Origin: Carposina sasakii
Taxonomy: Eukaryota > Arthropoda > Insecta > Lepidoptera > Carposinidae
Reading direction: 5' to 3'
NCBI GenBank assembly: GCA_014607495.2
Contig: CP053172.1
Span: forward strand, 4,478,888 to 4,542,887
Length of the DNA stretch: 64,000 nucleotides
The translations under genes and the position numbers were made by a program. The notes beneath the pieces were generated by a model. It saw nothing but the letters and a program-made list of their open reading frames with translations. It was not told the DNA's origin and ran no database searches. Shown one piece after another: positions 3,868-59,345 of the stretch. Position 1 is the first letter of the stretch. Every line of letters starts with the position of its first letter.

Positions 3868-4140
3868 TTATAAAATTATTAATAAAGAAAATTTGTCACC
3901 CGAGTGGGAATCGAACCCACGACCGCTGCAAACCGTGCCAGCCGCTATAACCACTAAGCCACCGGGTCAATTACTCGGATGACGAATTTTACCATCTCTT
4001 TTCTAAATTGCATATTGGCAACGTTATTTTTCATCCCGATAGCTATATATAAGCCAAATCTCGGCAAACAAAGCTGAATCCCTCAGCACAATGTTTAAAG
4101 ATGAAACGATCAACCATATCCTAAGGGATTATATGAAATA
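3868..4140 (-). repeat. SINE-2 copy (tRNA-derived)
   Basis: Read on the minus strand, the head resembles a tRNA gene: GACCCGGTGGCTTAGTGG (A-box region) and GGGTTCGATTCCCACTCGGG (B box and acceptor side). It lies between karst exons. The non-tRNA body (AATTACTCGGATGACGAATT side) recurs at 6140, 39885, 51848 and 59223. Confidence 0.7.
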
Positions 4141-6139: not shown

Positions 6140-6424
6140 TATAAAATTATTAATAAAGAAATGGAAAAAATTCCTCACCCGGGTGGGAATCGAACCCACG
6201 ACCTCTGCATTCCGTGCCAGCGCTCTTACCACTGAGCCACCGGGTCAATTACTCGGATGACGAATTTTACCATCTCTTTTTGAAATTACACTCTTGGAAA
6301 CGTTATTTTTTCATCCCGATAGCTATACACTAGCCAAATCTCGGCAAACAAAGCTGAATCCCTCAGCACTATGTTTTAATGATGAAACGATCAACCATAT
6401 CCTAACGGATTATATTAAATAAAT
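6140..6424 (-). repeat. SINE-2 copy
   Basis: Near duplicate of 3868-4140. On the minus strand it has a tRNA-like head with GGTTCGATTCCCACCCGGG, and on the plus strand the body GATGACGAATTTTACC and CAAAGCTGAATCCCTCAGCA. It is not a functional tRNA gene: no complete cloverleaf is evident and the module is dispersed. Confidence 0.7.
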
Positions 6425-13295: not shown

Positions 13296-13855
13296 AACAT
13301 ATAAGTCATACAATGAAATATAAAATATACCTCTTAAACGCTTTAAGAACGCTGTTGAAAATTAATTTCTCAGTGTTCTCAGTAAATCCTTTTAAAACCT
13401 TAGAGCGTATAATTAATTGGTCACGCTGTGCCCACCGTGACGTCATTATGACATAGCACACTGCTCTTTATGCCCTTCTAGACCTTGGGTGACCTCTATT
13501 CGTTGAAGGAGAGTCGCCGTTCTTATCTTATACTCCGTTTATTAGCATAAGAAATTAGGCAAACAAACATTAGATAAGCTGTGAAAATAAAAAATATTTT
13601 TAAACTAGAACTCGACAGATCGACGGACAGCTGTCTGTCCATGCCCTAAGAATCGATTAAGGAACTCGGCCATTCTCTCAGACCTCAACGCAACCTGGAC
13701 CTGGATCCAGCATATTCCGATTCACGTTTGGACCGAACCCGCCACGCTGGTCCAGTGAGGGTTGGCGGACGACCAAAGCCTCGTTTGTTATTCTGCACGA
13801 CGGGCAGGTGAGGTCCCTTGGGTTCTACCATGGGATCTGACGGATAAATACTAAC

Positions 13856-14023
13856 CTTAGTATGCAGAAAGCTGAGACTTTTGTTAACATTCTCAATCTT
13901 GTGCACCCTCATTCTCCCAGAATTGGGTCGTGGCAGACGCTCCCCGCTGATGATCTCCAGGAGCTTCAGCAGACGCCTGCCGTCCGCCAGGTCGGCGAAT
14001 AGGTCGTCTACCTCCATGCGGGC
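13856..14023 (-). CDS. kst: beta-heavy spectrin (karst), second visible coding exon
   Basis: Acceptor TTCCCAG, donor AAG|GTTAGT, 56 codons with phase 0 at both ends. It encodes ARMEVDDLFADLADGRRLLK, LLEIISGERLPRPNSGRMRV and HKIENVNKSLSFLHTK, the central helices of the first CH (actin-binding) domain. The longer open frame running to 14170 continues into SINE-1 and is not coding beyond the acceptor. Confidence 0.96.
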
Positions 14024-14039
14024 CTGGGAACAGGGAATA

Positions 14040-14273
14040 AATAAATAAATATTCACACACTTCACAACACATTGACCTAGTGCAACACTAAGATCCCTAA
14101 GTTCTTGTGTCGTGGGTACTAAAGCAACGGTATATCTATAAGTAAAGAAACATCCATGACTCGGAAACAAACATCGATATTCATCATATCAATGTTTGTA
14201 CCTATCGGGATTCGAACCCAGGACCTATAGCGTCGCAGGCAGGGCCACTACCAACTACACCAATTGGCCGTCA
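14040..14273 (-). repeat. SINE-1 copy
   Basis: Same module as 7381-7611, with GGGATTCGAACCCAGGACC and CACCAATTGGCCGTCA. It begins only about 17 bp upstream (gene direction) of the karst exon at 13856-14023, in the same orientation as the gene. Its AT-rich tail therefore lies next to the splice acceptor. Confidence 0.75.
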
Positions 14274-24866: not shown

Positions 24867-25158
24867 AAATTCCTGCTGATGCGGGAACTCACTAGAAATA
24901 TATATAATAATAATAATTTATTTCAAATAATAATAAGAAATATTATAAGAAAATATAATAAGAAATAAATAAGAAATATCTACATATCGCCTCTTTACAA
25001 GAACAACGTGACATCTCACAAAGTTGTGGTTTTAAAATATCTAGTTGAAGTATTCTAGAGAAGCACCATATAAACAATCTAGTTTTTATTTAAGAGTTCA
25101 GTAGTAAACCCACAAGTTTGTGTTTCATATTCCGTGAGTAACCCCCTGTGCTGATCGG

Positions 25159-25344
25159 CCCCCTGATTATGTAAAAGCAATGGCAAAGCCGAAGCAAAGC
25201 GATAGCGAAAATTTGTACAATATTCGCCATGAAATGTCAAAGTTCCTTTGAAATTCATTTTACGTAATACGAATTTGACAAGCAATCAGCGATTTTTGTA
25301 CTCTTTTCGCTATCGCTTTGCTTTTTCTAACTAGGTAATAAGGG
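25159..25344. mobile_element. R5 element
   Basis: Starts CCCCCTGATTATGTAAAAGC just after CGG, and ends GGTAATAAGGG. The interior GTACAATATTCGCCATGAAA and TTGACAAGCAATCAGCGATT is shared with 51879-52065 and 55315-55495. The right flank no longer shows CGG. Confidence 0.7.
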
Positions 25345-25419
25345 ATACATACATGTAGTAAAATAATAATATAAATCAGAAGTGGGATACGTAGGACTAT
25401 TATCGGCGGTAGGTACATT

Positions 25420-25774
25420 TGTAATGTACCCTAATAGTGTTTAACTTTCTCACTAAGATAATTTGTTTACATGATAATTAGTAATTATTGTTTATGAACA
25501 AAGGTCGTGGTAAAATTCTCGAAATATGTCTATTTGTTAATGATAGATATCAGAATAGTTTAAATACTCCTTCCTGGACCATTAGAGCCAGTTGACTTCC
25601 AACCTTCGGCGAGAGTAGTTACTCTGAGATAACAGTGCGCTATAAGTCCTCCGAAATAAGCAAGTTTGTACATGTAAGTGTAATAAATAAGTTGCTTATA
25701 TTAAAAACTGTGTCACCATAAACTGTCTTGTGTGTTTCGTTGAAAAACTCCCCTTCTGCACGCCGCACATTACA
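25420..25774 (+). repeat. 5' LTR
   Basis: 355 bp with the 8-bp inverted termini TGTAATGT and ACATTACA. It contains an AATAAA at 25682-25687. No clear TATA box was identified; a GTTTAAATACTCC stretch lies near 25557. By eye it matches the 3' LTR at every base. Confidence 0.95.
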
Positions 25775-25776
25775 AT

Positions 25777-25790
25777 TGGTGTCAGAAGTG
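25777..25790 (+). promoter_or_regulatory. primer binding site, tRNA-Leu type
   Basis: TGGTGTCAGAAGTG begins 2 bp after the LTR. It complements the CACTTCTGACACCA 3' end found on animal tRNA-Leu isoacceptors, recalled rather than searched. Beyond 14 bases the match is offset by an extra TG before TGGGA. Confidence 0.75.
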
Positions 25791-25845
25791 TGGGATCGTG
25801 AAAACTGTGGACTCGAAAGAAACGTGGACTGCCTGACAAATCACG

Positions 25846-26091
25846 TTGGTTTCCACAAAATTCGGTAACAGAACGCGAATTAAAAAACTCGTGTACCGAT
25901 TCTGTACGGCAAAGCAGTGGGCAAGAACGACAACAGACGGGGTGCAAGACACGGAGAAGTTATCGAGCTGTAAGAAACAGACGAGGTGCCAAGGAATAGA
26001 CAAGGTTCCAGAAACAGACGAGGTGCAAAATAGCAGAAAAGCAGTTATCAGCCAACGAAGTGTTGCAACTCAAAATAATTTCGACAAGTGA
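25846..26091 (+). other. 81-codon leader ORF upstream of gag
   Basis: Opens at ATG 25846 in the untranslated leader and stops at 26089-26091, 26 bp before the gag ATG. It is basic and polar with no known motif. Its last Lys codon spans a candidate splice donor (GTGAGT at 26088). Splicing from there to the acceptor before env would keep this frame open into env. It may simply be an untranslated leader. Confidence 0.35.
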
Positions 26092-26093
26092 GT
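26088..26093 (+). promoter_or_regulatory. candidate splice donor for env mRNA
   Basis: GTGAGT in the leader 30 bp upstream of gag is close to the donor consensus, in the position from which errantivirus subgenomic env transcripts are spliced. Unproven. Confidence 0.45.
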
Positions 26094-26117
26094 TATATTA
26101 TATAAATTTAGATTAAA

Positions 26118-29100
26118 ATGTCATTTAAGGAAGAAGTAATAAATCCGTCACAAGGATACATTGATATAGGGCTTGCGGAAAGAATGATAAACAAATATGA
26201 TGGTGATAAGGCAAATTTGCACGTTTTCCTAGATAACTGTAATAATGCTTACAATCTTTTAAATCCAATATATAAAATAGCTTTTGTGTCAGTGGTGCTA
26301 TCAAAAATAGAAGGTAATATTAGGTCGACATTATTAAATAGGTCATTCGACTCCTGGAAGGATTTAGAAAAACATTTACTAGAAAATTACTCTGAAAAAC
26401 GAACGTTTGCTCAATGGCAGTTAGAGTTAAATTCATGTAAGCAAAATCACAATGAGCCGGTCTTAAAATATTCTGGTAGGGTTGAGAATTGCTATATTAA
26501 GTTGATTAAATCTTTGAGTCCAAATCTAACTAAGGAAGCACGGGAAGCTAATGTCGAATTATTAAAAAACCAAGCATTAAATATTTTTATTAGTGGTCTT
26601 ATACCACAGTTGCATATTCTATTAAAATCACAAAAACCTCAAAATTTCGAAGAAGCAGTTTCGATTGCTATTTCGGAAGAACAAGAAATTAAATCTAGGC
26701 AAGAAATGAGCACTAGGCAATATGATCCACGAGCAAAAAGATGTTCTAACTGTAACAGATTAGGACATCTAGCTTTTCAATGTAGGCAACAAGTTATGGT
26801 TAGACCAATGCAAACGAATAATGTAAATTCAATACCTACTTGCTTTAATTGTTCAAAAAAAGGGCATTACGCGAAGGACTGTTGGCATAGAAATCATGAT
26901 TATAATCGAACAAACAATAATCCACATTTTAATAGATTTCCAAACAATTATCGTGCAAATAAAAACAAGCCACCAAACAGATTACCGGGGAACTTGGTAG
27001 CTCAAGGAAATAGAGATAATACTCACTCGAGTAATTTAAACTCAAACGGTCCAAGGGCAGCACAGGGTGCAGGTCGAATAATGTTTATTAATACAGGCGT
27101 ATCCGTTTATGTCAACTTATCAGCTAACGAAATAAAAAATAATAGTAATAAATTTCTGATAGACACGGGTGCTGAAATAAGTTTAGTGAAATTAAAATAT
27201 TTAGAAGGAGAGACTCTAGTTTATGAAGATAAAAAGTATAAGTTACGAGGAATTGATAAAGATGCAAATCCGACTGAAACTAAAGGCTATACACATATAA
27301 CATTTAATATAGGTGAAAAACAAGTATATCATACCCTCTCTGTGGTCCCTGATAACTTTCCTATAGATTGTGTTGGTGTCATAGGTAGCGATTTCCTTCA
27401 GTCTACAAATTCTGTAATTGATTTTCAGCGAGGAAAAATCGAAATAATAGGAGTAAGTTTAGATATTGAGTTTGAAGGTGAAGGTGTAAGTTTGATTGAT
27501 AATTCTGAAGTTGAGAGCAATTGCGAAGTCTATAGTAACATTTCAGACGACGGAATATTTAATAAAAATATTGAAAAACCTGAATCTGATGAAAAAAGTT
27601 TTATAGAGTTTAAAAGGAAACAATTATTAAGGGATAATATTATAAGAAATAAAAATCGTACTAAGTTAAGTGATAAAAGCGAAAGTTGTAAACAAAAAGA
27701 TGATAATTATATAATAAACGATGAAATTCCTAAAAGTAAAAGCCAAAACGCGAATATTCAATGTGAAAATGAAATAATAATAGAACCTAGATGCGAGAAA
27801 ATAATACAAGTTAAAATTATAAATAAAGAATTAAAAGAAGGAGTTATCTTAGAACCATTGGAGATAACAAAAGGAGTTTATTTATGCCCAAGTATCATTA
27901 AAGTTAAAGATTTTATTGGTATAACAGCTTGTTTGAATACAACAAATGAAACAATTAAGATAAATAATGTTAGTGTCAAAATAGACCCATTAGTAAGCGA
28001 CGAGTCGGATGTGATTAAGACAATGCAAATTAACAAGATAAGAAATGAGAAGTCATTTAGTAGTAAGCGATTAGATAAATTAGAACAAGCGTTGAGAACT
28101 GAACACATGAACAAAGAAGAAAAAGAGTCATTAGTCGAAGTGTGTAAACAATATAATCACATATTTCATTTAGAAGGTGATTCATTGACTGCCACAGATA
28201 CAGTCATGCACGAAATACCAACTAATAATGAAATTCCAATTAATGCTAAATCATATAGGTATCCAGAAGCCTTAAAGGAAGAAGTTAATCAGCAAATAAC
28301 AAAACTACTTGAAGATAATATAATAAAACCTTCAAGCAGTCCATGGAATTCTCCAGTTTGGGTCGTACCAAAGAAAATGGACGCTTCCGGAAAGAAGAAA
28401 TGGAGACTCGTAATCGATTTTCGAAAATTGAACGAGATAAGTGTTGGAGATGTATATCCTTTACCACAGATTAACGATATTTTAGATCAGCTAGGTCACA
28501 GTAAATACTTTACTACACTAGATTTAGCTTCAGGATTTCATCAAATTAAAATGCATCCGAACGATCAAGCGAAAACAGCGTTCAGCGTACCTTTAGGTCA
28601 TTACGAATATAACCGTATGCCTTTTGGTTTGAAAAATGCGCCAGCAACGTTTCAACGTCTTATGAACAATGTGTTAACGGGAATACAAGGAGTTAAATGT
28701 TTTGTTTACCTTGATGATATCGTAATTTATGGAAATTCCTTACAAGATCATCATGAAAAATTAAGAGAAGTTTTTGATAGACTGTCACAACATAATTTGA
28801 AGTTACAACCAGACAAGTGTGAGTTTTTAAAAACCGAGGTTATGTATTTAGGTCATTTGATCACACAAAATGGTGTTAAACCAGATCCAAAAAAAGTTGA
28901 AGCTGTAAAAAACTTTCCGATACCTAAAAACCCTAAGGACATTAAAAGTTTTCTAGGTTTAGCCGGATATTACAGACGTTTCATAGAAGATTTCAGTAAA
29001 TTAACACAACCTCTTACTAAACTCTTAAAGAAAGATATACCGTTCTTATGGACAAGTTTACAACAAAATTCCTTCGAAACCTTAAAGTCGAAACTATGTG

Positions 29101-30842
29101 AAGAACCTATATTACAATATCCAAATTTTGCTGAAACTTTCAATTTAACTACAGACGCTAGCAATTATGCAATCGGTAGTGTACTATCACAAGGACTAGT
29201 ATCGAAAGATCTTCCTATCGCTTACGCAAGTAGAACACTAAACAAAGCTGAAGTAAACTATTCTACGACCGAGAAAGAACTATTAGCAATAGTGTGGTCC
29301 GTGAAACACTTCAGGCCTTATTTATATGGTAGAAAATTTCGAATTATAACTGATCACAAACCATTAACATGGTTATTCAACGTAAAGGATCCAGGTTCAA
29401 GGCTAGTTAGATGGAGACTACTTCTGGAAGAATATGACTATGAAATTATATATAAACAAGGAAAATTGAATCAAAATGCAGATGCTTTAAGTCGCATTAT
29501 GCCGGAACATAATGATTCCTTAAATAAATTTCGATTAGTTACAAGAAGCGGAGAAACCTACTCATCATTCCTAAAAGAAATGATAAGAAGACCAATCTTG
29601 TATAATAAACTTGAAGAACATAATGAAACAATTCCAGATAAAGCTAATAGAGTAATTTTTACCTCATGCGATTTAGATAAAGAAAATGAAACAAACCTCA
29701 ATAAATATGATAAATATATTGATTTGTTAAAATGTAATAAACCTAAATTATATGATACTTTAGAAATTGATACGGAGAATCAATCAACGATTTTCTTTTG
29801 CTTTATTCGAATGAATAATTGGGACAAAATCTCTTATAACGATATTTTTGATTGCATTAAGAATTTGAAAAACAAATTAATGCAACTTAATATTAAAGAA
29901 ATTAGTTTTGGAAATTTATCAGAACTTCATTTAAAATGGCACAAAATAAGAACAATAATAAGATATTTATTTAAAGATACTGATATTCAAATTCACGTTT
30001 ATCATTCTCAAGTACGAATTCCAAGTAAAGATGAAATACTTACCATCTTAGAGGAAAATCATTCAAATATTATGTCAGGACACACTGGATTTCATAAAAC
30101 CTATAAGAAAATCAAAGCTCGTTACCACTGGGAAACAATGAAAAAAGATATAAAGGAATTTATCAAAAAATGTAAATCGTGTCAAGAAAATAAAATTAAT
30201 AGGAACAAATATCGACAACCAATGGAAATAACATCAACCTCAACAGAAGCTTTCGAAAAGGTCGCTGTTGACATAGTAGGCCCTTTGCCTACTACAGAAA
30301 ATGGAAATAAATACATTTTGACATTACAAGACGACTTGACAAAATTTTCACAAGCATATCCTATATCTCAACATAACGCAGAAACAATAGCTGATTGTTT
30401 TGTACGTAATTTTATTTGTAAATTTGGTATTCCAAAGATTCTGTTATCCGATCAGGGAGCTGATTTTACTTCAAATTTAATAAAAGAAATCTCTAAACTA
30501 TTTAAGATAAAAAAGATAAACACAAGCGCGTATCATCCTCAATCTAATGGAGCATTGGAAAGAAGCCATTCTACTCTTGCAGACTATTTGAAACATTATG
30601 TAAATGAAGATCAAACCAATTGGGATAATTGGATTGATTTTGCTATGTTTTCGTACAATACTAGCGTTCATAATTCCACTAATTTCACTCCATTTGAATT
30701 AGTTTTCGGAATAAAAGCTTCTCTGCCGACTTCAATAATTAAAGAACCAGAATTTAAATATTTTTATAATAATTACATTGATGAATTAATATTAAGGTTA
30801 AGAAAATCTCGCGAAATTGCTAGAAAAAATATAATAGAATGA
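26118..30842 (+). CDS. gag-pol: gag-pol polyprotein, one frame, terminated early by TGA
   Basis: 1574 codons. The Gag part has a capsid-like N-terminal region and two CCHC zinc knuckles (from Cys209, CSNCNRLGHLAFQC, and from Cys242, CFNCSKKGHYAKDC), then an Asn-rich stretch. The aspartic protease has DTGAE at about 349. A long Lys/Asn/Glu-rich spacer follows. The reverse transcriptase includes VWVVPKK and YLDD at 864-867. RNase H follows with TDASNYAIGSVLS near 1013. Integrase has an HHCC zinc module at about 1315-1355 and the catalytic triad D1385, D1445, E1481 (59 and 35 residues between). The frame stops at 30840-30842 before the integrase C-terminal domain is complete. The start was chosen as the first ATG after the leader. 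Gag and pol are not separated by a frameshift, unlike gypsy itself. Confidence 0.93.
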   Translation: MSFKEEVINPSQGYIDIGLAERMINKYDGDKANLHVFLDNCNNAYNLLNPIYKIAFVSVVLSKIEGNIRSTLLNRSFDSWKDLEKHLLENYSEKRTFAQWQLELNSCKQNHNEPVLKYSGRVENCYIKLIKSLSPNLTKEAREANVELLKNQALNIFISGLIPQLHILLKSQKPQNFEEAVSIAISEEQEIKSRQEMSTRQYDPRAKRCSNCNRLGHLAFQCRQQVMVRPMQTNNVNSIPTCFNCSKKGHYAKDCWHRNHDYNRTNNNPHFNRFPNNYRANKNKPPNRLPGNLVAQGNRDNTHSSNLNSNGPRAAQGAGRIMFINTGVSVYVNLSANEIKNNSNKFLIDTGAEISLVKLKYLEGETLVYEDKKYKLRGIDKDANPTETKGYTHITFNIGEKQVYHTLSVVPDNFPIDCVGVIGSDFLQSTNSVIDFQRGKIEIIGVSLDIEFEGEGVSLIDNSEVESNCEVYSNISDDGIFNKNIEKPESDEKSFIEFKRKQLLRDNIIRNKNRTKLSDKSESCKQKDDNYIINDEIPKSKSQNANIQCENEIIIEPRCEKIIQVKIINKELKEGVILEPLEITKGVYLCPSIIKVKDFIGITACLNTTNETIKINNVSVKIDPLVSDESDVIKTMQINKIRNEKSFSSKRLDKLEQALRTEHMNKEEKESLVEVCKQYNHIFHLEGDSLTATDTVMHEIPTNNEIPINAKSYRYPEALKEEVNQQITKLLEDNIIKPSSSPWNSPVWVVPKKMDASGKKKWRLVIDFRKLNEISVGDVYPLPQINDILDQLGHSKYFTTLDLASGFHQIKMHPNDQAKTAFSVPLGHYEYNRMPFGLKNAPATFQRLMNNVLTGIQGVKCFVYLDDIVIYGNSLQDHHEKLREVFDRLSQHNLKLQPDKCEFLKTEVMYLGHLITQNGVKPDPKKVEAVKNFPIPKNPKDIKSFLGLAGYYRRFIEDFSKLTQPLTKLLKKDIPFLWTSLQQNSFETLKSKLCEEPILQYPNFAETFNLTTDASNYAIGSVLSQGLVSKDLPIAYASRTLNKAEVNYSTTEKELLAIVWSVKHFRPYLYGRKFRIITDHKPLTWLFNVKDPGSRLVRWRLLLEEYDYEIIYKQGKLNQNADALSRIMPEHNDSLNKFRLVTRSGETYSSFLKEMIRRPILYNKLEEHNETIPDKANRVIFTSCDLDKENETNLNKYDKYIDLLKCNKPKLYDTLEIDTENQSTIFFCFIRMNNWDKISYNDIFDCIKNLKNKLMQLNIKEISFGNLSELHLKWHKIRTIIRYLFKDTDIQIHVYHSQVRIPSKDEILTILEENHSNIMSGHTGFHKTYKKIKARYHWETMKKDIKEFIKKCKSCQENKINRNKYRQPMEITSTSTEAFEKVAVDIVGPLPTTENGNKYILTLQDDLTKFSQAYPISQHNAETIADCFVRNFICKFGIPKILLSDQGADFTSNLIKEISKLFKIKKINTSAYHPQSNGALERSHSTLADYLKHYVNEDQTNWDNWIDFAMFSYNTSVHNSTNFTPFELVFGIKASLPTSIIKEPEFKYFYNNYIDELILRLRKSREIARKNIIE

Positions 30843-31085
30843 AAGGAAATTAATAAAAGAATATATGACAAGAAAACTAAAATAAAAGAATTCAAAGTAG
30901 GAGATTCCGTATATTTAAGTAATGAACAGGTTAAGTTAGGAAAGTCCAAAAAATTGTCACCATATTGGTTAGGTCCATTTTCAGTCATAGAAGTAAACTC
31001 TCCAGTAAATGTAACGATTCGTATCAAGAAAAGAAAAATGAGAGTACATACTAATCGATTGAAACATGCATTTGTTTCAGGATGA
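30843..31085 (+). pseudogene. pol: 3' part of pol, cut off by the TGA (integrase C-terminal region)
   Basis: The same reading frame stays open for 80 codons after the TGA and shows a GPF-type core (SPYWLGPFSVIEV), the chromatin/DNA-binding C-terminal domain of Ty3/gypsy integrases. It ends at a TGA (31083-31085) that overlaps the env ATG. The break is a single nonsense codon with no frameshift. Read-through, or a mutation at a CGA or similar codon, could each explain it. Confidence 0.85.
31071..31081 (+). promoter_or_regulatory. candidate env splice acceptor
   Basis: TTTGTTTCAG ends one base before the env ATG at 31082. A pyrimidine-rich tract plus CAG fits an acceptor for a spliced env mRNA. 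Confidence 0.5.
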
Positions 31086-33046
31086 TCATCATCCTCATAT
31101 TGGTGATAACCGTTGTATATGGAAACGAAGCAATAAATGTAGATAATGTAGATTCTTATAATATAACTAAGATAGATAAAGGAGGTATATATTTTGAACA
31201 TTTAGGTAAGATTAATCATTATGATAGTGAGTGGACTCTAGTAAGTTATTTAGATATTTCAGAAATACACCGTAAAATTGATCTTATTGATAACACATAT
31301 AGAAAAACGAAAGAAATATGCAGTCATAAAAAGTTTAACGATTTTTCTCTTTGCAATACATCACTTATTGTCCTTGAACAAATAATTCCCCAATTATATA
31401 ACCAAGAAAACGTTCTTAAAGAATTGATAGGTAAAAATAACAATGTCCGTAGAGTAAAACGATCATATATTGATGGAGTAGGCAAACTGTTAAAAGTTTT
31501 CTTCGGAACTTTAGATACAGAAGATGCACAACGTTATGATGACGCAATAGGAAATTTAGATTCTAATGAACATCAGTTATTGAAATTGTTAAAGACTCAA
31601 ACTAATGTGATAAAGACAACTATTTCTAATTTTAATAGCACAATTACTGATCTAAGCATTCATGAGAAAATTTTTCTCATATATATTCTTACTAATTGTA
31701 CTAAAGATGTAAATAAAATTTTATTTAATATAAACCTAAAGCAGGACATTGATGAACACATGTCTCTTTTGACATTGATGACTTCAGAAATTAACAATGA
31801 AATTTCTACTATTATTAATGTAATATTATTTGCAAAGAATAATGTTTTACATCCATTAATCATTACTCCAGAACAATATATTGCAGAACTTAAGAAAACC
31901 GTGCCATATTTGCCATTACAAACCAAATATCCTTTAAGTCTTACTGTATATGATGCAGCAGAATTATTGTCACTAATTAATCTTGTTTCGTATTATATGA
32001 ACAATAAACTAGTTTTTGTTATTAGAACACCACTTATTACGCAAACTAATTATGAAATATATAATATTGTACCTGTACCAATTAGAAATAAGGATAACAC
32101 ATTTATTTTTATTTTACCAAAGGAAAAATATTTTTTGATATCGAATAATAAGTTACATTACACTTATATTAATGATTTTAATAATTGCAAAAAATTATCT
32201 AATAATTATATTTGTAGATTATATTCACCATTATACTCCACAAATAGTAACCCAACATGTGAAACACAGTTAATGTTTGGAAAATCAAACATTCCGAGTG
32301 AATGCGATACTAGAATTGCTTACATAGTTAATGAACAATGGTACAAAATGTATAGTGAAAATAATTGGTTATATGTAATTCCTAATAGAGTAATTGCGAC
32401 ACTTAGTTGTAAGAATAAAGAACCTTTTGACTTTGATTTAGTTGATACTGGTATATTATCCATTAAAGATAGTTGTAAATTATATACTGTCAATATTGTT
32501 CTTCAAACCGAAACTAAAGGACTTATAAGCGAATATAGTTCATTTTTACCTAAAATAGATATTATTAATGATGATTGTTGTAAGAAAATAAAAGATAAAA
32601 ATATTTCTCAATTAGAATTCATATCATTAAAGTCACACGAAAAGTTAAATTTAGAAGAATTAAATTTAGTTAGTCACAAAATTAATAAAGTTGAAGAGAT
32701 GATATCAAATTTAGAACAAAAACCTGTTTATGATAGAATTGTAAATAATGTTTATTTTATATACACTGTCTTAAGTATTTTAAAAATTGTTGGATTTTAT
32801 TTAATATATCGCATAGGAAAATACCTTTATAAACGTAAATTTCTTTGTACACATCAAAATAGACTGTTAGCTTTAGAAGACTCACAGAGATGCTGTTCTA
32901 GAGTTACAAATTGTATAACATTTAAACTGAACAATAACCCAAGAGATGATGTAGAATTAGAAGAAATACCGAGTAATAGTAATAATGAAACCGTAACTAC
33001 TCCTTTACGAAGAAGTAACAGAATTGCTCAATTAAAAATAAATTAA
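31082..33046 (+). CDS. env: envelope glycoprotein, F-protein-like
   Basis: 654 codons, uninterrupted. Residues 1-14 are a hydrophobic signal peptide. A furin-type site RRVKR at 123-127 is followed by SYIDGVGKLLKVFFGTLDTE, which resembles the fusion peptide and F2/F1 junction of baculovirus F proteins and errantivirus Env. The surface part has many potential N-glycosylation sites and cysteines. One transmembrane segment lies at about 557-580 (FIYTVLSILKIVGFYLIYRI), followed by a roughly 75-residue tail. The ATG overlaps the pol terminator. All features expected of a membrane-fusion Env are present; activity is not demonstrated. Confidence 0.92.
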   Translation: MIIILILVITVVYGNEAINVDNVDSYNITKIDKGGIYFEHLGKINHYDSEWTLVSYLDISEIHRKIDLIDNTYRKTKEICSHKKFNDFSLCNTSLIVLEQIIPQLYNQENVLKELIGKNNNVRRVKRSYIDGVGKLLKVFFGTLDTEDAQRYDDAIGNLDSNEHQLLKLLKTQTNVIKTTISNFNSTITDLSIHEKIFLIYILTNCTKDVNKILFNINLKQDIDEHMSLLTLMTSEINNEISTIINVILFAKNNVLHPLIITPEQYIAELKKTVPYLPLQTKYPLSLTVYDAAELLSLINLVSYYMNNKLVFVIRTPLITQTNYEIYNIVPVPIRNKDNTFIFILPKEKYFLISNNKLHYTYINDFNNCKKLSNNYICRLYSPLYSTNSNPTCETQLMFGKSNIPSECDTRIAYIVNEQWYKMYSENNWLYVIPNRVIATLSCKNKEPFDFDLVDTGILSIKDSCKLYTVNIVLQTETKGLISEYSSFLPKIDIINDDCCKKIKDKNISQLEFISLKSHEKLNLEELNLVSHKINKVEEMISNLEQKPVYDRIVNNVYFIYTVLSILKIVGFYLIYRIGKYLYKRKFLCTHQNRLLALEDSQRCCSRVTNCITFKLNNNPRDDVELEEIPSNSNNETVTTPLRRSNRIAQLKIN

Positions 33047-33284
33047 TTGTTTAAATGTTATTATATTTTCATAATGATGTATCTTGTTATTTGAATTAAG
33101 TTTTGCCGACTATGAAAATTAATGTTTCAATTTTAAATTTAAATGTATTCGTGTAGGATAGATAATTAAAATAAAAATAATAATTGTATTATGATTAAGT
33201 AATTTAGAAATGATTAAGTAATTTAGAAATGATTAAGTAGTAGTTATTGTATTAGTTATAAATAAAAACTGTGTTTTTATTCTT

Positions 33285-33297
33285 AAAGGGGGAGGAA
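33285..33297 (+). promoter_or_regulatory. polypurine tract
   Basis: AAAGGGGGAGGAA abuts the 3' LTR, the primer for plus-strand DNA synthesis. Confidence 0.9.
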
Positions 33298-33652
33298 TGT
33301 AATGTACCCTAATAGTGTTTAACTTTCTCACTAAGATAATTTGTTTACATGATAATTAGTAATTATTGTTTATGAACAAAGGTCGTGGTAAAATTCTCGA
33401 AATATGTCTATTTGTTAATGATAGATATCAGAATAGTTTAAATACTCCTTCCTGGACCATTAGAGCCAGTTGACTTCCAACCTTCGGCGAGAGTAGTTAC
33501 TCTGAGATAACAGTGCGCTATAAGTCCTCCGAAATAAGCAAGTTTGTACATGTAAGTGTAATAAATAAGTTGCTTATATTAAAAACTGTGTCACCATAAA
33601 CTGTCTTGTGTGTTTCGTTGAAAAACTCCCCTTCTGCACGCCGCACATTACA
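33298..33652 (+). repeat. 3' LTR
   Basis: 355 bp, identical by eye to the 5' LTR. The AATAAA at 33560-33565 is the likely poly(A) signal of the element's transcript. Confidence 0.95.
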
Positions 33653-33667
33653 CATTGAGTTGTTAAT

Positions 33668-33780: not shown

Positions 33781-33932
33781 TTGAGTTGTATTAGTTAATA
33801 CAGGATGAACAGTTAATAAATACACCATATTTAACCGCGGAAGGAAAAATACAAAAATAATACGAGTAAGCTAATACTTACATAGTAATTTTTCTATCGA
33901 TAGTAAAGCCGGTAATGGCCTAGTTTTGTACA

Positions 33933-34320
33933 TACAGGATGTTTTTTTGTGGCCACCTTTAACGAAGGGTACGTACTCTATACATGAAATAAAGTAAGTT
34001 TATGCCAAAAAAAATGCTGGGAAAAAAAAAATCTTTTTTTGAAAAAAAATTTTTAATTCCTTGATCGTGCGAAATTTATAGTGTCCAGTGTTTATGTTAG
34101 TTTTTTTATAGACAGATATTAATTATTTTTCGTGAAAAAATCCTGCTACGCGCGTCTATGTGCATTTATGCAGAAAAACGCAGTCTATTTACTCAACTTT
34201 GGACCCTAATATTTTGGAAACCAGACACTTCCCAGGTATGCTTCCATGGAGAAAAATGATCGTGATGATGAGGAGATTCCGTAGTTTTCGGGAACGTTGA
34301 CGACCAAAAATCATCCTGTA
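33933..34320 (+). repeat. MITE-B copy 3
   Basis: TACAGGATGTTTTTTTGTGG to AAAAATCATCCTGTA, full length, with an A/T-homopolymer core near 34030. Confidence 0.8.
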
Positions 34321-34493: not shown

Positions 34494-34576
34494 ATAAATA
34501 AATGGAAAAAATTCCTCACCCGGGTGGGAATCGAACCCGCGACCTCTGCATTCTGTGCCAGCGCTCTTACCATTAA
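34494..34576 (-). repeat. SINE-2 fragment
   Basis: Carries CACCCGGGTGGGAATCGAAC and the anticodon-arm-like middle only. The rest is missing. Confidence 0.55.
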
Positions 34577-34633
34577 GCTACATTTTGTAGTCCACACTGA
34601 CGAAGTGTTACAAAAAAAAACTACAAATTAGTG

Positions 34634-37823: not shown

Positions 37824-39119
37824 CGAGGGCTGTTTGATAAGTCCTTTTAAAAACTATTTGTAAAACCTTTTTTCTGGTAAATGGCGTTAACACTGGCAGG
37901 CACAATCTTTCAAATGAAGACTGTCAAAAATTCAGCAAAAAAAAAACAAGTTTTTGTCAGTATAACCATTGTTTAACTGTGATCACTCGTAAATATTCAA
38001 CAACTATGGAAAAAACTGAATTTCGTGCCGTTATAAAACATTTTTTTATGAAGGGTTGCAGTGCTGCCACAATAAAAACTGAACTTGATTCTGTTCATGG
38101 CACTAACGCACCAACGTTGCAGACTGTTTATAACTGGATAAATGATTTTAAACGTGGTCGGTCAAGCACATCTGATGCTCCACGCTCTGGTCGCCCAATC
38201 GAAGTCACTACTGAGGATGTTGTTGAAGAAGTCCATAATATTGTACTCGACGACCGCCGAGTGAAGGTGCGTGAAATAGCTGAGAACACAGGCATCTCCA
38301 CTGAGCGAGTACATAAAATCCTGCATGAAGATTTGGGTATGACAAAGCTGTCTGCACGATGGGTGCCATGTTTGTTGACAATCGAACAAAAACACGAAAG
38401 AAAGCGAATTTCAAAACTGTGTTTGGATATGATGAAGCGTAATCCTCGGAATTTTTTGAGTCGATTTGTCACTGTGGACGAAACTTGGGTCCATCATTAT
38501 ACACCTGAATCAAAACAGCAATCAAAACAATGGATGGCGACTGGTGAACGTGCCCCAAAGAAGGCCAAGACTGTTTTGTCGGCTGGAAAGGTCATGGCGA
38601 CAGTCTTCTGGGATGGCGAAGGAATCATTATGATTGATTACTTGGAAAAGGGAAAGACTATCGCTGGCCGTTATTACGCAGAGTTATTGGACCGTTTTAA
38701 TGTCGAATTGTTGGAAAAACGACCAAAATTGTCCCCCAAGAAAGTCCTCTTACATCAAGACAATGCCCCAGTGCACACGTCAACTATTGCAATGGCCAAA
38801 ATCCACGAGTTAGGCTTCGAACTGGTTCCGCATGCTCCGTATTCGCCGGATCTAGCTCCGTGCGATTATTACCTATTCCCAAATCTGAAAAGATGGCTTG
38901 GAGGGCAAAAATTTTTGACAAATGAGGACTGCATCGCTGGTGTAAACGCCTATTTTGAAGACCTCGACAAAACGTATTTTTTGGAGGGGATAAAAAAATT
39001 GGAAACTCGCTGGAACAAGTGTTTGGCCCTCAAAGGAGACTATGTTGAGAAATAAATGTAAATTGTTTAAAAAAAATAAAAAAAATTACTTTTTAAAACG
39101 ACTTATCAAACAGCCCTCG
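37824..39119 (+). mobile_element. mariner element, apparently intact
   Basis: 1296 bp with terminal inverted repeats of about 30 bp, beginning CGAGGGCTGTTTGATAAGTC at each end and differing at one position in the first 30. A TA duplication lies at 37822-37823 and 39120-39121. It carries a single uninterrupted transposase frame. Confidence 0.95.
38006..39055 (+). CDS. mariner transposase
   Basis: 349 residues if translation starts at MEKTEF (38006). The frame is open nine codons further up (37979), but the family normally starts near this Met. The N-terminal half has helix-turn-helix DNA-binding segments (TLQTVYNWINDFKRGRSS, VKVREIAENTGISTERVHKI). The catalytic domain shows D,D34D: VDETWVHH, LHQDNAPVHTS and YSPDLAPCDYYLFPNLK, the third Asp being the one before YYLF. 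WVPCLL replaces the usual WVPHEL linker. It catalyses cut-and-paste at TA sites. No stop or frameshift was seen. Confidence 0.95.
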   Translation: MEKTEFRAVIKHFFMKGCSAATIKTELDSVHGTNAPTLQTVYNWINDFKRGRSSTSDAPRSGRPIEVTTEDVVEEVHNIVLDDRRVKVREIAENTGISTERVHKILHEDLGMTKLSARWVPCLLTIEQKHERKRISKLCLDMMKRNPRNFLSRFVTVDETWVHHYTPESKQQSKQWMATGERAPKKAKTVLSAGKVMATVFWDGEGIIMIDYLEKGKTIAGRYYAELLDRFNVELLEKRPKLSPKKVLLHQDNAPVHTSTIAMAKIHELGFELVPHAPYSPDLAPCDYYLFPNLKRWLGGQKFLTNEDCIAGVNAYFEDLDKTYFLEGIKKLETRWNKCLALKGDYVEK

Positions 39120-59222: not shown

Positions 59223-59345
59223 AAGAAAACTAAAAAATTCTTTACCCGAGTGAGATTTGAACTCACGACCTCTCGCATTCCGTGCATCGCTCTAACCAAC
59301 TGAGCTATCGGGTCGATTAACTCGGATGACGAATTTTACCATCTC
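59223..59345 (-). repeat. SINE-2 fragment
   Basis: CACGACCTCTCGCATTCCGT, AACCAACTGAGCTATCGGGT and GGATGACGAATTTTACCATC. Confidence 0.7.

What the first reader, a model, noticed from the sequence alone, without database searches (positions are those of the whole stretch)
25420..33652. Young, nearly intact endogenous retrovirus with env in a lepidopteran genome
Seen: LTRs identical by eye over 355 bp, a CATT target duplication, primer site, polypurine tract, and open gag-pol and env frames with all catalytic motifs. Known: env-bearing Ty3/gypsy elements of insects can be infectious. Inferred: insertion was very recent, so the insertion may be polymorphic and related active copies may exist.
Basis: partly seen in the sequence, partly recalled or inferred. 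Interest (0 to 1): 0.8.

Follow-up and report, generated by a model that had tools for sequence, protein, structure and literature searches.

The report
Recent moth retrovirus-like element, integrase truncated
The window holds a recently inserted retrovirus-like element with an envelope gene, one of a small family in this insect genome; it is a fairly ordinary find, and it is not intact because a stop codon cuts off the end of its integrase.

Summary
Window 25420-33652 is an 8,233-bp Ty3/gypsy (Metaviridae) provirus with identical 355-bp LTRs, a CATT target duplication, a tRNA-Leu primer site, a polypurine tract, gag-pol and an F-type (baculovirus F-like) env. "Nearly intact" needs correcting: the gag-pol ORF ends at an in-frame stop (30840-30842), after which the same frame encodes the integrase C-terminal GPY/F domain. 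Three of three sister copies examined differ from the window there, so the stop looks private to this copy. Five other loci of the family were found in the host genome: one near-full-length copy with several stops, three deleted copies, one solo LTR. None of these is coding-complete as far as examined. Few amino-acid changes separate the window from sister C17b (8 nonsynonymous, 17 synonymous), so both descend from recently functional lines. The LTR clock allows any age up to about 1.5 million generations; polymorphism was not testable. Gag and integrase traits do not match those printed for Errantivirus, but the clade stays unresolved. Env-bearing Ty3/gypsy elements of Lepidoptera are known; this is a new member.

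The parts
25416..25419 (.). 5' copy of the target-site duplication, CATT
   Evidence: matching 4-bp duplications also at sister loci C17b (CTTA), C23 (GCTA) and solo LTR C9 (GCAG)
25420..25774 (+). 5' LTR, 355 bp
   Evidence: identical to the 3' LTR
25777..25790 (+). primer binding site, 14 nt complementary to tRNA-Leu 3' end plus CCA; starts 2 nt after the LTR
25775..26117 (+). leader, 343 bp
   Evidence: 98-99.7% alike in sister copies C23 and C17b, 95% in C17a
26118..30842 (+). gag-pol, one ORF of 1574 aa, ending at a premature stop
26742..26882 (+). two CCHC zinc knuckles of Gag (26742-26783, 26841-26882)
27162..27173 (+). protease active site DTGA
   Evidence: PF00077
28365..29435 (+). 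reverse transcriptase (YLDD at 28707-28718) and RNase H
30027..30842 (+). integrase zinc-binding and catalytic core domains
   Evidence: PF17921, PF00665
30843..31085 (+). integrase C-terminal (GPY/F) coding stretch, cut off from the ORF by the stop at 30840-30842
   Evidence: relatives P0055-P0059 align across the stop at 75-81% identity
31082..33046 (+). env, 654 aa, F-type class I fusion protein; furin-type site at 31451-31462
33285..33297 (+). polypurine tract
33298..33652 (+). 3' LTR, 355 bp
33653..33656 (.). 3' copy of the target-site duplication, CATT

Best explanation
It is a provirus of a small, recently mobile family of env-bearing Ty3/gypsy elements. Inferred from known Metaviridae biology: a genomic RNA made from the LTR promoter was reverse-transcribed inside a Gag particle from a tRNA-Leu primer, and integrase placed it with a 4-bp stagger in germline DNA. 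The parent particle may also have carried the F-type envelope, which would allow passage from soma to germline as in Drosophila gypsy or ZAM. Shown here: the anatomy, the small number of copies found, purifying selection among copies, and that env and pol have diverged together. Also shown: this copy carries a premature stop that removes the integrase C-terminal domain. That it therefore cannot integrate on its own is inferred.
Against: No expression, particle or infection data. A near-full-length sister (C17a) has edges that do not match and several stops, and C17b has 20 gap columns against the window in gag, so the family is not uniformly young or sound. The gag-piece and RT-piece DNA searches of the genome did not complete, so copies without LTR, env and integrase could be missed. 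Readthrough of the stop, or an assembly error there, cannot be excluded without RNA or reads.
Confidence: 0.85

Rival explanations
1. A fully competent, currently replicating endogenous retrovirus, with the stop either an assembly error or read through.
For: All catalytic motifs and env are open; LTRs identical; selection signature between copies.
Against: In-frame stop before the integrase C-terminal domain, at a codon that differs in three of three sister copies examined. No coding-complete copy among the loci examined.
Confidence: 0.1
2. An older, fixed insertion whose LTRs look identical because the LTR clock is coarse or because of gene conversion.
For: 355 bp has little resolving power: at 0.5 million generations 36% of such pairs would still be identical at 2.9e-9.
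Against: The target duplication is intact; the nine LTRs compared (of twelve matches) differ by 0-4 substitutions, so the family as a whole is young (one further match is a 79% relative, two were not compared).
Confidence: 0.15
3. An errantivirus in the strict sense (gypsy/gypsy clade).
For: F-type env, insect host, gag, pol and env regions.
Against: Two CCHC knuckles, a GPY/F-type motif in the integrase C-terminal stretch, primer site 2 nt beyond the LTR, gag and pol in one frame, against criteria in passages of PMC2577118, section 10 of PMC3286476 and passages of PMC4276936.
Confidence: 0.3

Closest known systems
Env-bearing LTR elements of Lepidoptera (BmERVs of Bombyx mori, AyLTRs of Antheraea yamamai, TED of Trichoplusia ni)
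   Same: LTR-gag-pol-env-LTR layout and env related to insect-ERV and baculovirus F proteins; env-bearing copies are few and seldom complete: 7 of 256 in B. mori, 3 with full structure and none intact (PMC6085415 Results section); 11 of 541 in A. yamamai, 4 with full structure (PMC6563192 passages)
   Different: No sequence of these was at hand, so no direct comparison; here env is complete and the damage seen is one stop in integrase
Drosophila errantiviruses (gypsy, ZAM)
   Same: F-type env downstream of pol, insect germline host
   Different: Gag has two CCHC knuckles, the integrase C-terminal stretch keeps a GPY/F-type motif, gag-pol is one frame, primer site lies 2 nt beyond the LTR
Micropia/Mdg3 lineage
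   Same: Two CCHC knuckles (criterion in passages of PMC2577118); a tRNA-Leu primer is recalled for this lineage, not checked
   Different: Carries env; the protease flap is not the GIGG form; no named sequence compared
Unnamed public contigs P0055-P0059 (pol) and P0001-P0003 (env)
   Same: 77-80% identity over RT-integrase, 58-68% over env
   Different: Unnamed source organisms; single proteins on short contigs

Membership tests
Metaviridae (Ty3/gypsy) | LTRs, tRNA primer site, polypurine tract, order protease-RT-RNase H-integrase | tested here: met
   RT-RNase H matches Ty3 (4ol8) at 300 bits
Errantivirus | F-type env gene | tested here: met
   PF12259, 189 bits; env fold
Errantivirus | Gag without CCHC arrays (PMC2577118 passages) | tested here: not met
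   two CCHC arrays
Errantivirus | integrase without GPY/F motif (PMC2577118 passages) | tested here: not met
   GPF in the frame after the stop; GPY in relatives P0055-P0060
Errantivirus | primer site overlaps last base of 5' LTR (PMC3286476 section 10) | tested here: not met
   primer site starts 2 nt after the LTR
Errantivirus | pol read by frameshift from gag (gypsy; PMC4276936 passages) | tested here: not met
   one ORF 26118-30842
Errantivirus | pol groups with named errantiviruses | not tested
   no named reference sequence obtained
Errantivirus | env from a spliced mRNA | not testable with these tools
   no RNA data; one donor-like site at 26088 only
Micropia/Mdg3 lineage | two CCHC arrays in Gag (PMC2577118 passages) | tested here: met
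Micropia/Mdg3 lineage | GIGG protease flap (PMC2577118 passages) | tested here: inconclusive
   flap region reads GID, neither GIGG nor TIHG
Micropia/Mdg3 lineage | pol groups with micropia/mdg3 | not tested
   no named reference sequence obtained
Intact, coding-complete provirus | open gag, pol and env with all domains | tested here: not met
   integrase C-terminal domain cut off by a stop
Recent insertion | identical LTRs and intact target duplication | tested here: met
   95% bound about 1.46 million generations

The most novel reading that the evidence does not exclude
The element belongs to an env-bearing Ty3/gypsy lineage that is not Errantivirus: its Gag and integrase are of the CCHC, GPY/F type, and its F-type env has co-diverged with pol over a long time. 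F-type retrovirus-like elements would then exist in at least two Ty3/gypsy branches of insects, besides the BEL/Pao elements of the same genome.
Probability: 0.25. Interest if true: 0.5.

Novelty: new member of a known kind. Interest (0 to 1): 0.3.

Why it matters
Env-bearing Ty3/gypsy elements are the insect counterpart of vertebrate endogenous retroviruses and a main target of ovarian somatic piRNA defence (PMC13172572, abstract and passages). This genome holds several such families next to BEL/Pao elements with F-type env, so it is a compact place to ask how env genes are kept and lost. The finding itself mainly corrects a claim: an element that looks intact by eye is broken in integrase.

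Tried and rejected
Considered and rejected: (1) 'C9 element with foreign cargo': two LTRs on C9 enclose 8.6 kb; the roughly 1.9 and 2.5 kb next to them matched nothing of the window's internal pieces (the middle part, L071-L072, was fetched but not compared). Both LTRs have the same flanks with GCAG on each side, so it is one solo LTR copied in a tandem duplication of period 8,981 bp. (2) Naming the clade by a fold search of the RT-integrase piece: the 50 rows shown (of 159 with E <= 0.001) were mainly retroviruses and caulimovirus-type viruses, with one 38% hit labelled Aedes aegypti To virus 1 on top and no named gypsy element (model pTM 0.34). (3) Named relatives in viral contigs: 1 and 26 stretches matched a pattern, none was confirmed. 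Phage records: none. (4) An env alignment search of viral contigs could not be run. (5) Whether the stretch between RNase H and integrase is a remnant macro domain: no Pfam match, dropped. (6) A paralogous empty target site in the same genome: none seen; among scored hits (40 of 1,204 and 40 of 2,812 candidates) the flank next to the junction had only one other match, 88% over 75 bases of the 3' flank on C14. (7) L060 as a comparison: its RT is too distant to place. (8) My first LTR comparison had three copies in the wrong orientation; one search replaces it and covers nine of the twelve matches. (9) Before the RT tree: of 40 RT loci fetched, 13 gave no RT match and one was under 300 aa and dropped. 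The paper by Chary and Hayashi on env-carrying elements across metazoans is not held, so overlap with its catalogue could not be checked; I saw it only as a citation in PMC13172572.

Full report
Check of the observation. The two LTRs are 25420-25774 and 33298-33652, 355 bp each, with no difference. CATT stands directly outside both ends. The 14-nt primer site at 25777-25790 matches the 3' end of tRNA-Leu plus CCA; seven exact copies of that tRNA end are in the genome, none of the reversed control pattern, and ARAGORN calls tRNA-Leu(CAG) at 2 of the 4 loci tested. The polypurine tract is 33285-33297. Gag-pol is one ORF, 26118-30842, with two zinc knuckles, protease, RT, RNase H and integrase; env is 31082-33046, 654 aa, PF12259 at 189 bits.

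The gag-pol ORF stops at 30840-30842 inside the integrase. The same frame then runs on to 31083-31085 and encodes the C-terminal domain with a GPF motif. Eight of eight relatives whose last 200 residues were compared align across the stop, the closest five at 75-81% identity over 198 residues. In three of three sister copies examined (C17b, C17a, C13) the codon differs; C17b is open to the natural end, while C17a and C13 have other stops in the region. So the stop looks private to the window copy. The natural pol end overlaps the env start by 4 nt (31082-31085). The integrase C-terminal domain is generally needed for integration (recalled), so this copy is probably not autonomous.

The family in this genome. 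The window lies in G000, 399 Mb in 31 contigs, at C25:4478888-4542887. The LTR search gave 12 matches, all 12 candidates scored. With the env and integrase searches they make six loci of the family plus one 79% LTR: the window copy; C17b, 7,015 bp, identical LTRs, open env, about 1.2 kb missing between gag and integrase; C17a, 8,288 bp, 97-98% alike over the gag, RT and integrase pieces, several stops; C23, 6,067 bp, leader followed by env pieces; C13, a 3' part with env pieces; C9, one solo LTR lying in a tandem duplication. Matching 4-bp duplications are at the window, C17b, C23 and C9; the C17a edges do not match. The nine LTRs compared differ by 0-4 substitutions. Copy counts are lower bounds, and the gag-piece and RT-piece DNA searches did not complete.

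Selection and age. Between the window and C17b, in the parts of gag, integrase and env that could be aligned, 8 differences are nonsynonymous and 17 synonymous; 0.767 of changes would be nonsynonymous without selection, P = 2.6e-6. Codons with gaps (20 gap columns in gag) and the stop codon are not in this count. Against C17a the counts are 23 and 19, P = 0.0014, with 57 gap columns left out (same calls). So the family's lines were under purifying selection until shortly before these insertions. With 0 of 355 differences the 95% bound is 0.0085 substitutions per site, about 1.46 million generations at 2.9e-9; that rate for Heliconius, and 4.1e-9 for silkworm, which would shorten the bound to about 1.0 million, are from passages of PMC10048334. 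Identical LTRs are therefore weak evidence for an insertion young enough to be polymorphic; 56 of 256 Bombyx mori elements have them too (PMC6085415 Results section).

Kinship. Env relatives: 54 proteins, best 68, 60 and 58% in unnamed contigs, with Spodoptera litura, Bicyclus anynana and Brenthis ino proteins at 55-64% over 30-71% of the length, and Diabrotica at 40%. Pol relatives: 77-80% in five unnamed contigs. In a tree of 51 RT rows the window joins P0055-P0059 with support 100/99; no other row of this genome falls in its group. Thirteen rows of this genome, nine of them with an env match within 2.5 kb downstream, fall in a group of 18 rows (100/98), and five more in a group of their own (99/95). 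The env tree of 21 rows gives the same main groups, but 7 of its 18 inner forks are open, and P0163, P0070 and the Diabrotica env are unresolved in it. So env seems to have been inherited with pol and is not a recent capture. In the same genome 60 of 68 scored env matches (of 237 candidates) belong to other elements at 22-33% identity.

Clade. Four traits given in print for errantiviruses or gypsy are not met: no CCHC in Gag and no GPY/F in integrase (PMC2577118 passages), primer site overlapping the LTR (PMC3286476 section 10), and a frameshift between gag and pol (PMC4276936 passages). As far as I know those statements rest mainly on dipteran elements, so they may not bind for Lepidoptera. 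ICTV notes that env presence does not follow the genus split (PMC7879559, whole text). In Drosophila melanogaster all 17 env-bearing Metaviridae lineages are gypsy/gypsy (PMC12992720 passages). Without named reference sequences I cannot place the pol, and I leave the clade open.

Verdict. A real, recent, retrovirus-like provirus with a complete env and a truncated integrase, one of a small family in what is very probably a lepidopteran genome. It is a new member of a known kind.

Noticed in passing
G000 loci L050, L051, L053, L055, L062 (upstream of env matches, whose open frames reach 2,548 aa): BEL/Pao elements (Peptidase_A17 in L050, L051, L053, L055; DUF5641 in L050, L053, L055, L062) stand before F-type env matches; in L062 integrase, DUF5641 and Baculo_F share one open frame of 1,151 aa, so env seems fused in frame to pol.
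   Followed up: partly
window 37979-39055 (+): A 358-aa open frame with mariner-type transposase domains (PF01359, HTH_48); looks like a young mariner element.
   Followed up: no
window 25154-25344: A repeat of about 190 bp with an inverted-repeat structure, 93-96% alike at many places in the genome, MITE-like, just upstream of the provirus.
   Followed up: no
window 33930-34052: A repeat of about 120 bp found at many places at 95-98% identity.
   Followed up: no
window 13685-14170 (-): An exon-like frame with a calponin-homology domain nearest to beta-spectrin and alpha-actinin.
   Followed up: no
window 3896-3968, 6175-6246, 34523-34581, 59242-59314 (-): Four tRNA-family matches on the minus strand with similar sequences; ARAGORN reports two of them, one with an undetermined anticodon. 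They may be tRNA-derived SINE heads rather than tRNA genes.
   Followed up: no
G000:C17:4296381-4296713: An LTR 79% identical to this family's, beside another env-bearing element (RT at 4289521, env at 4292945) only 69% alike in RT and 29% in env.
   Followed up: partly
G000:C9:1777024-1786360: A tandem duplication with a period of 8,981 bp that contains a solo LTR of this family in each copy.
   Followed up: yes
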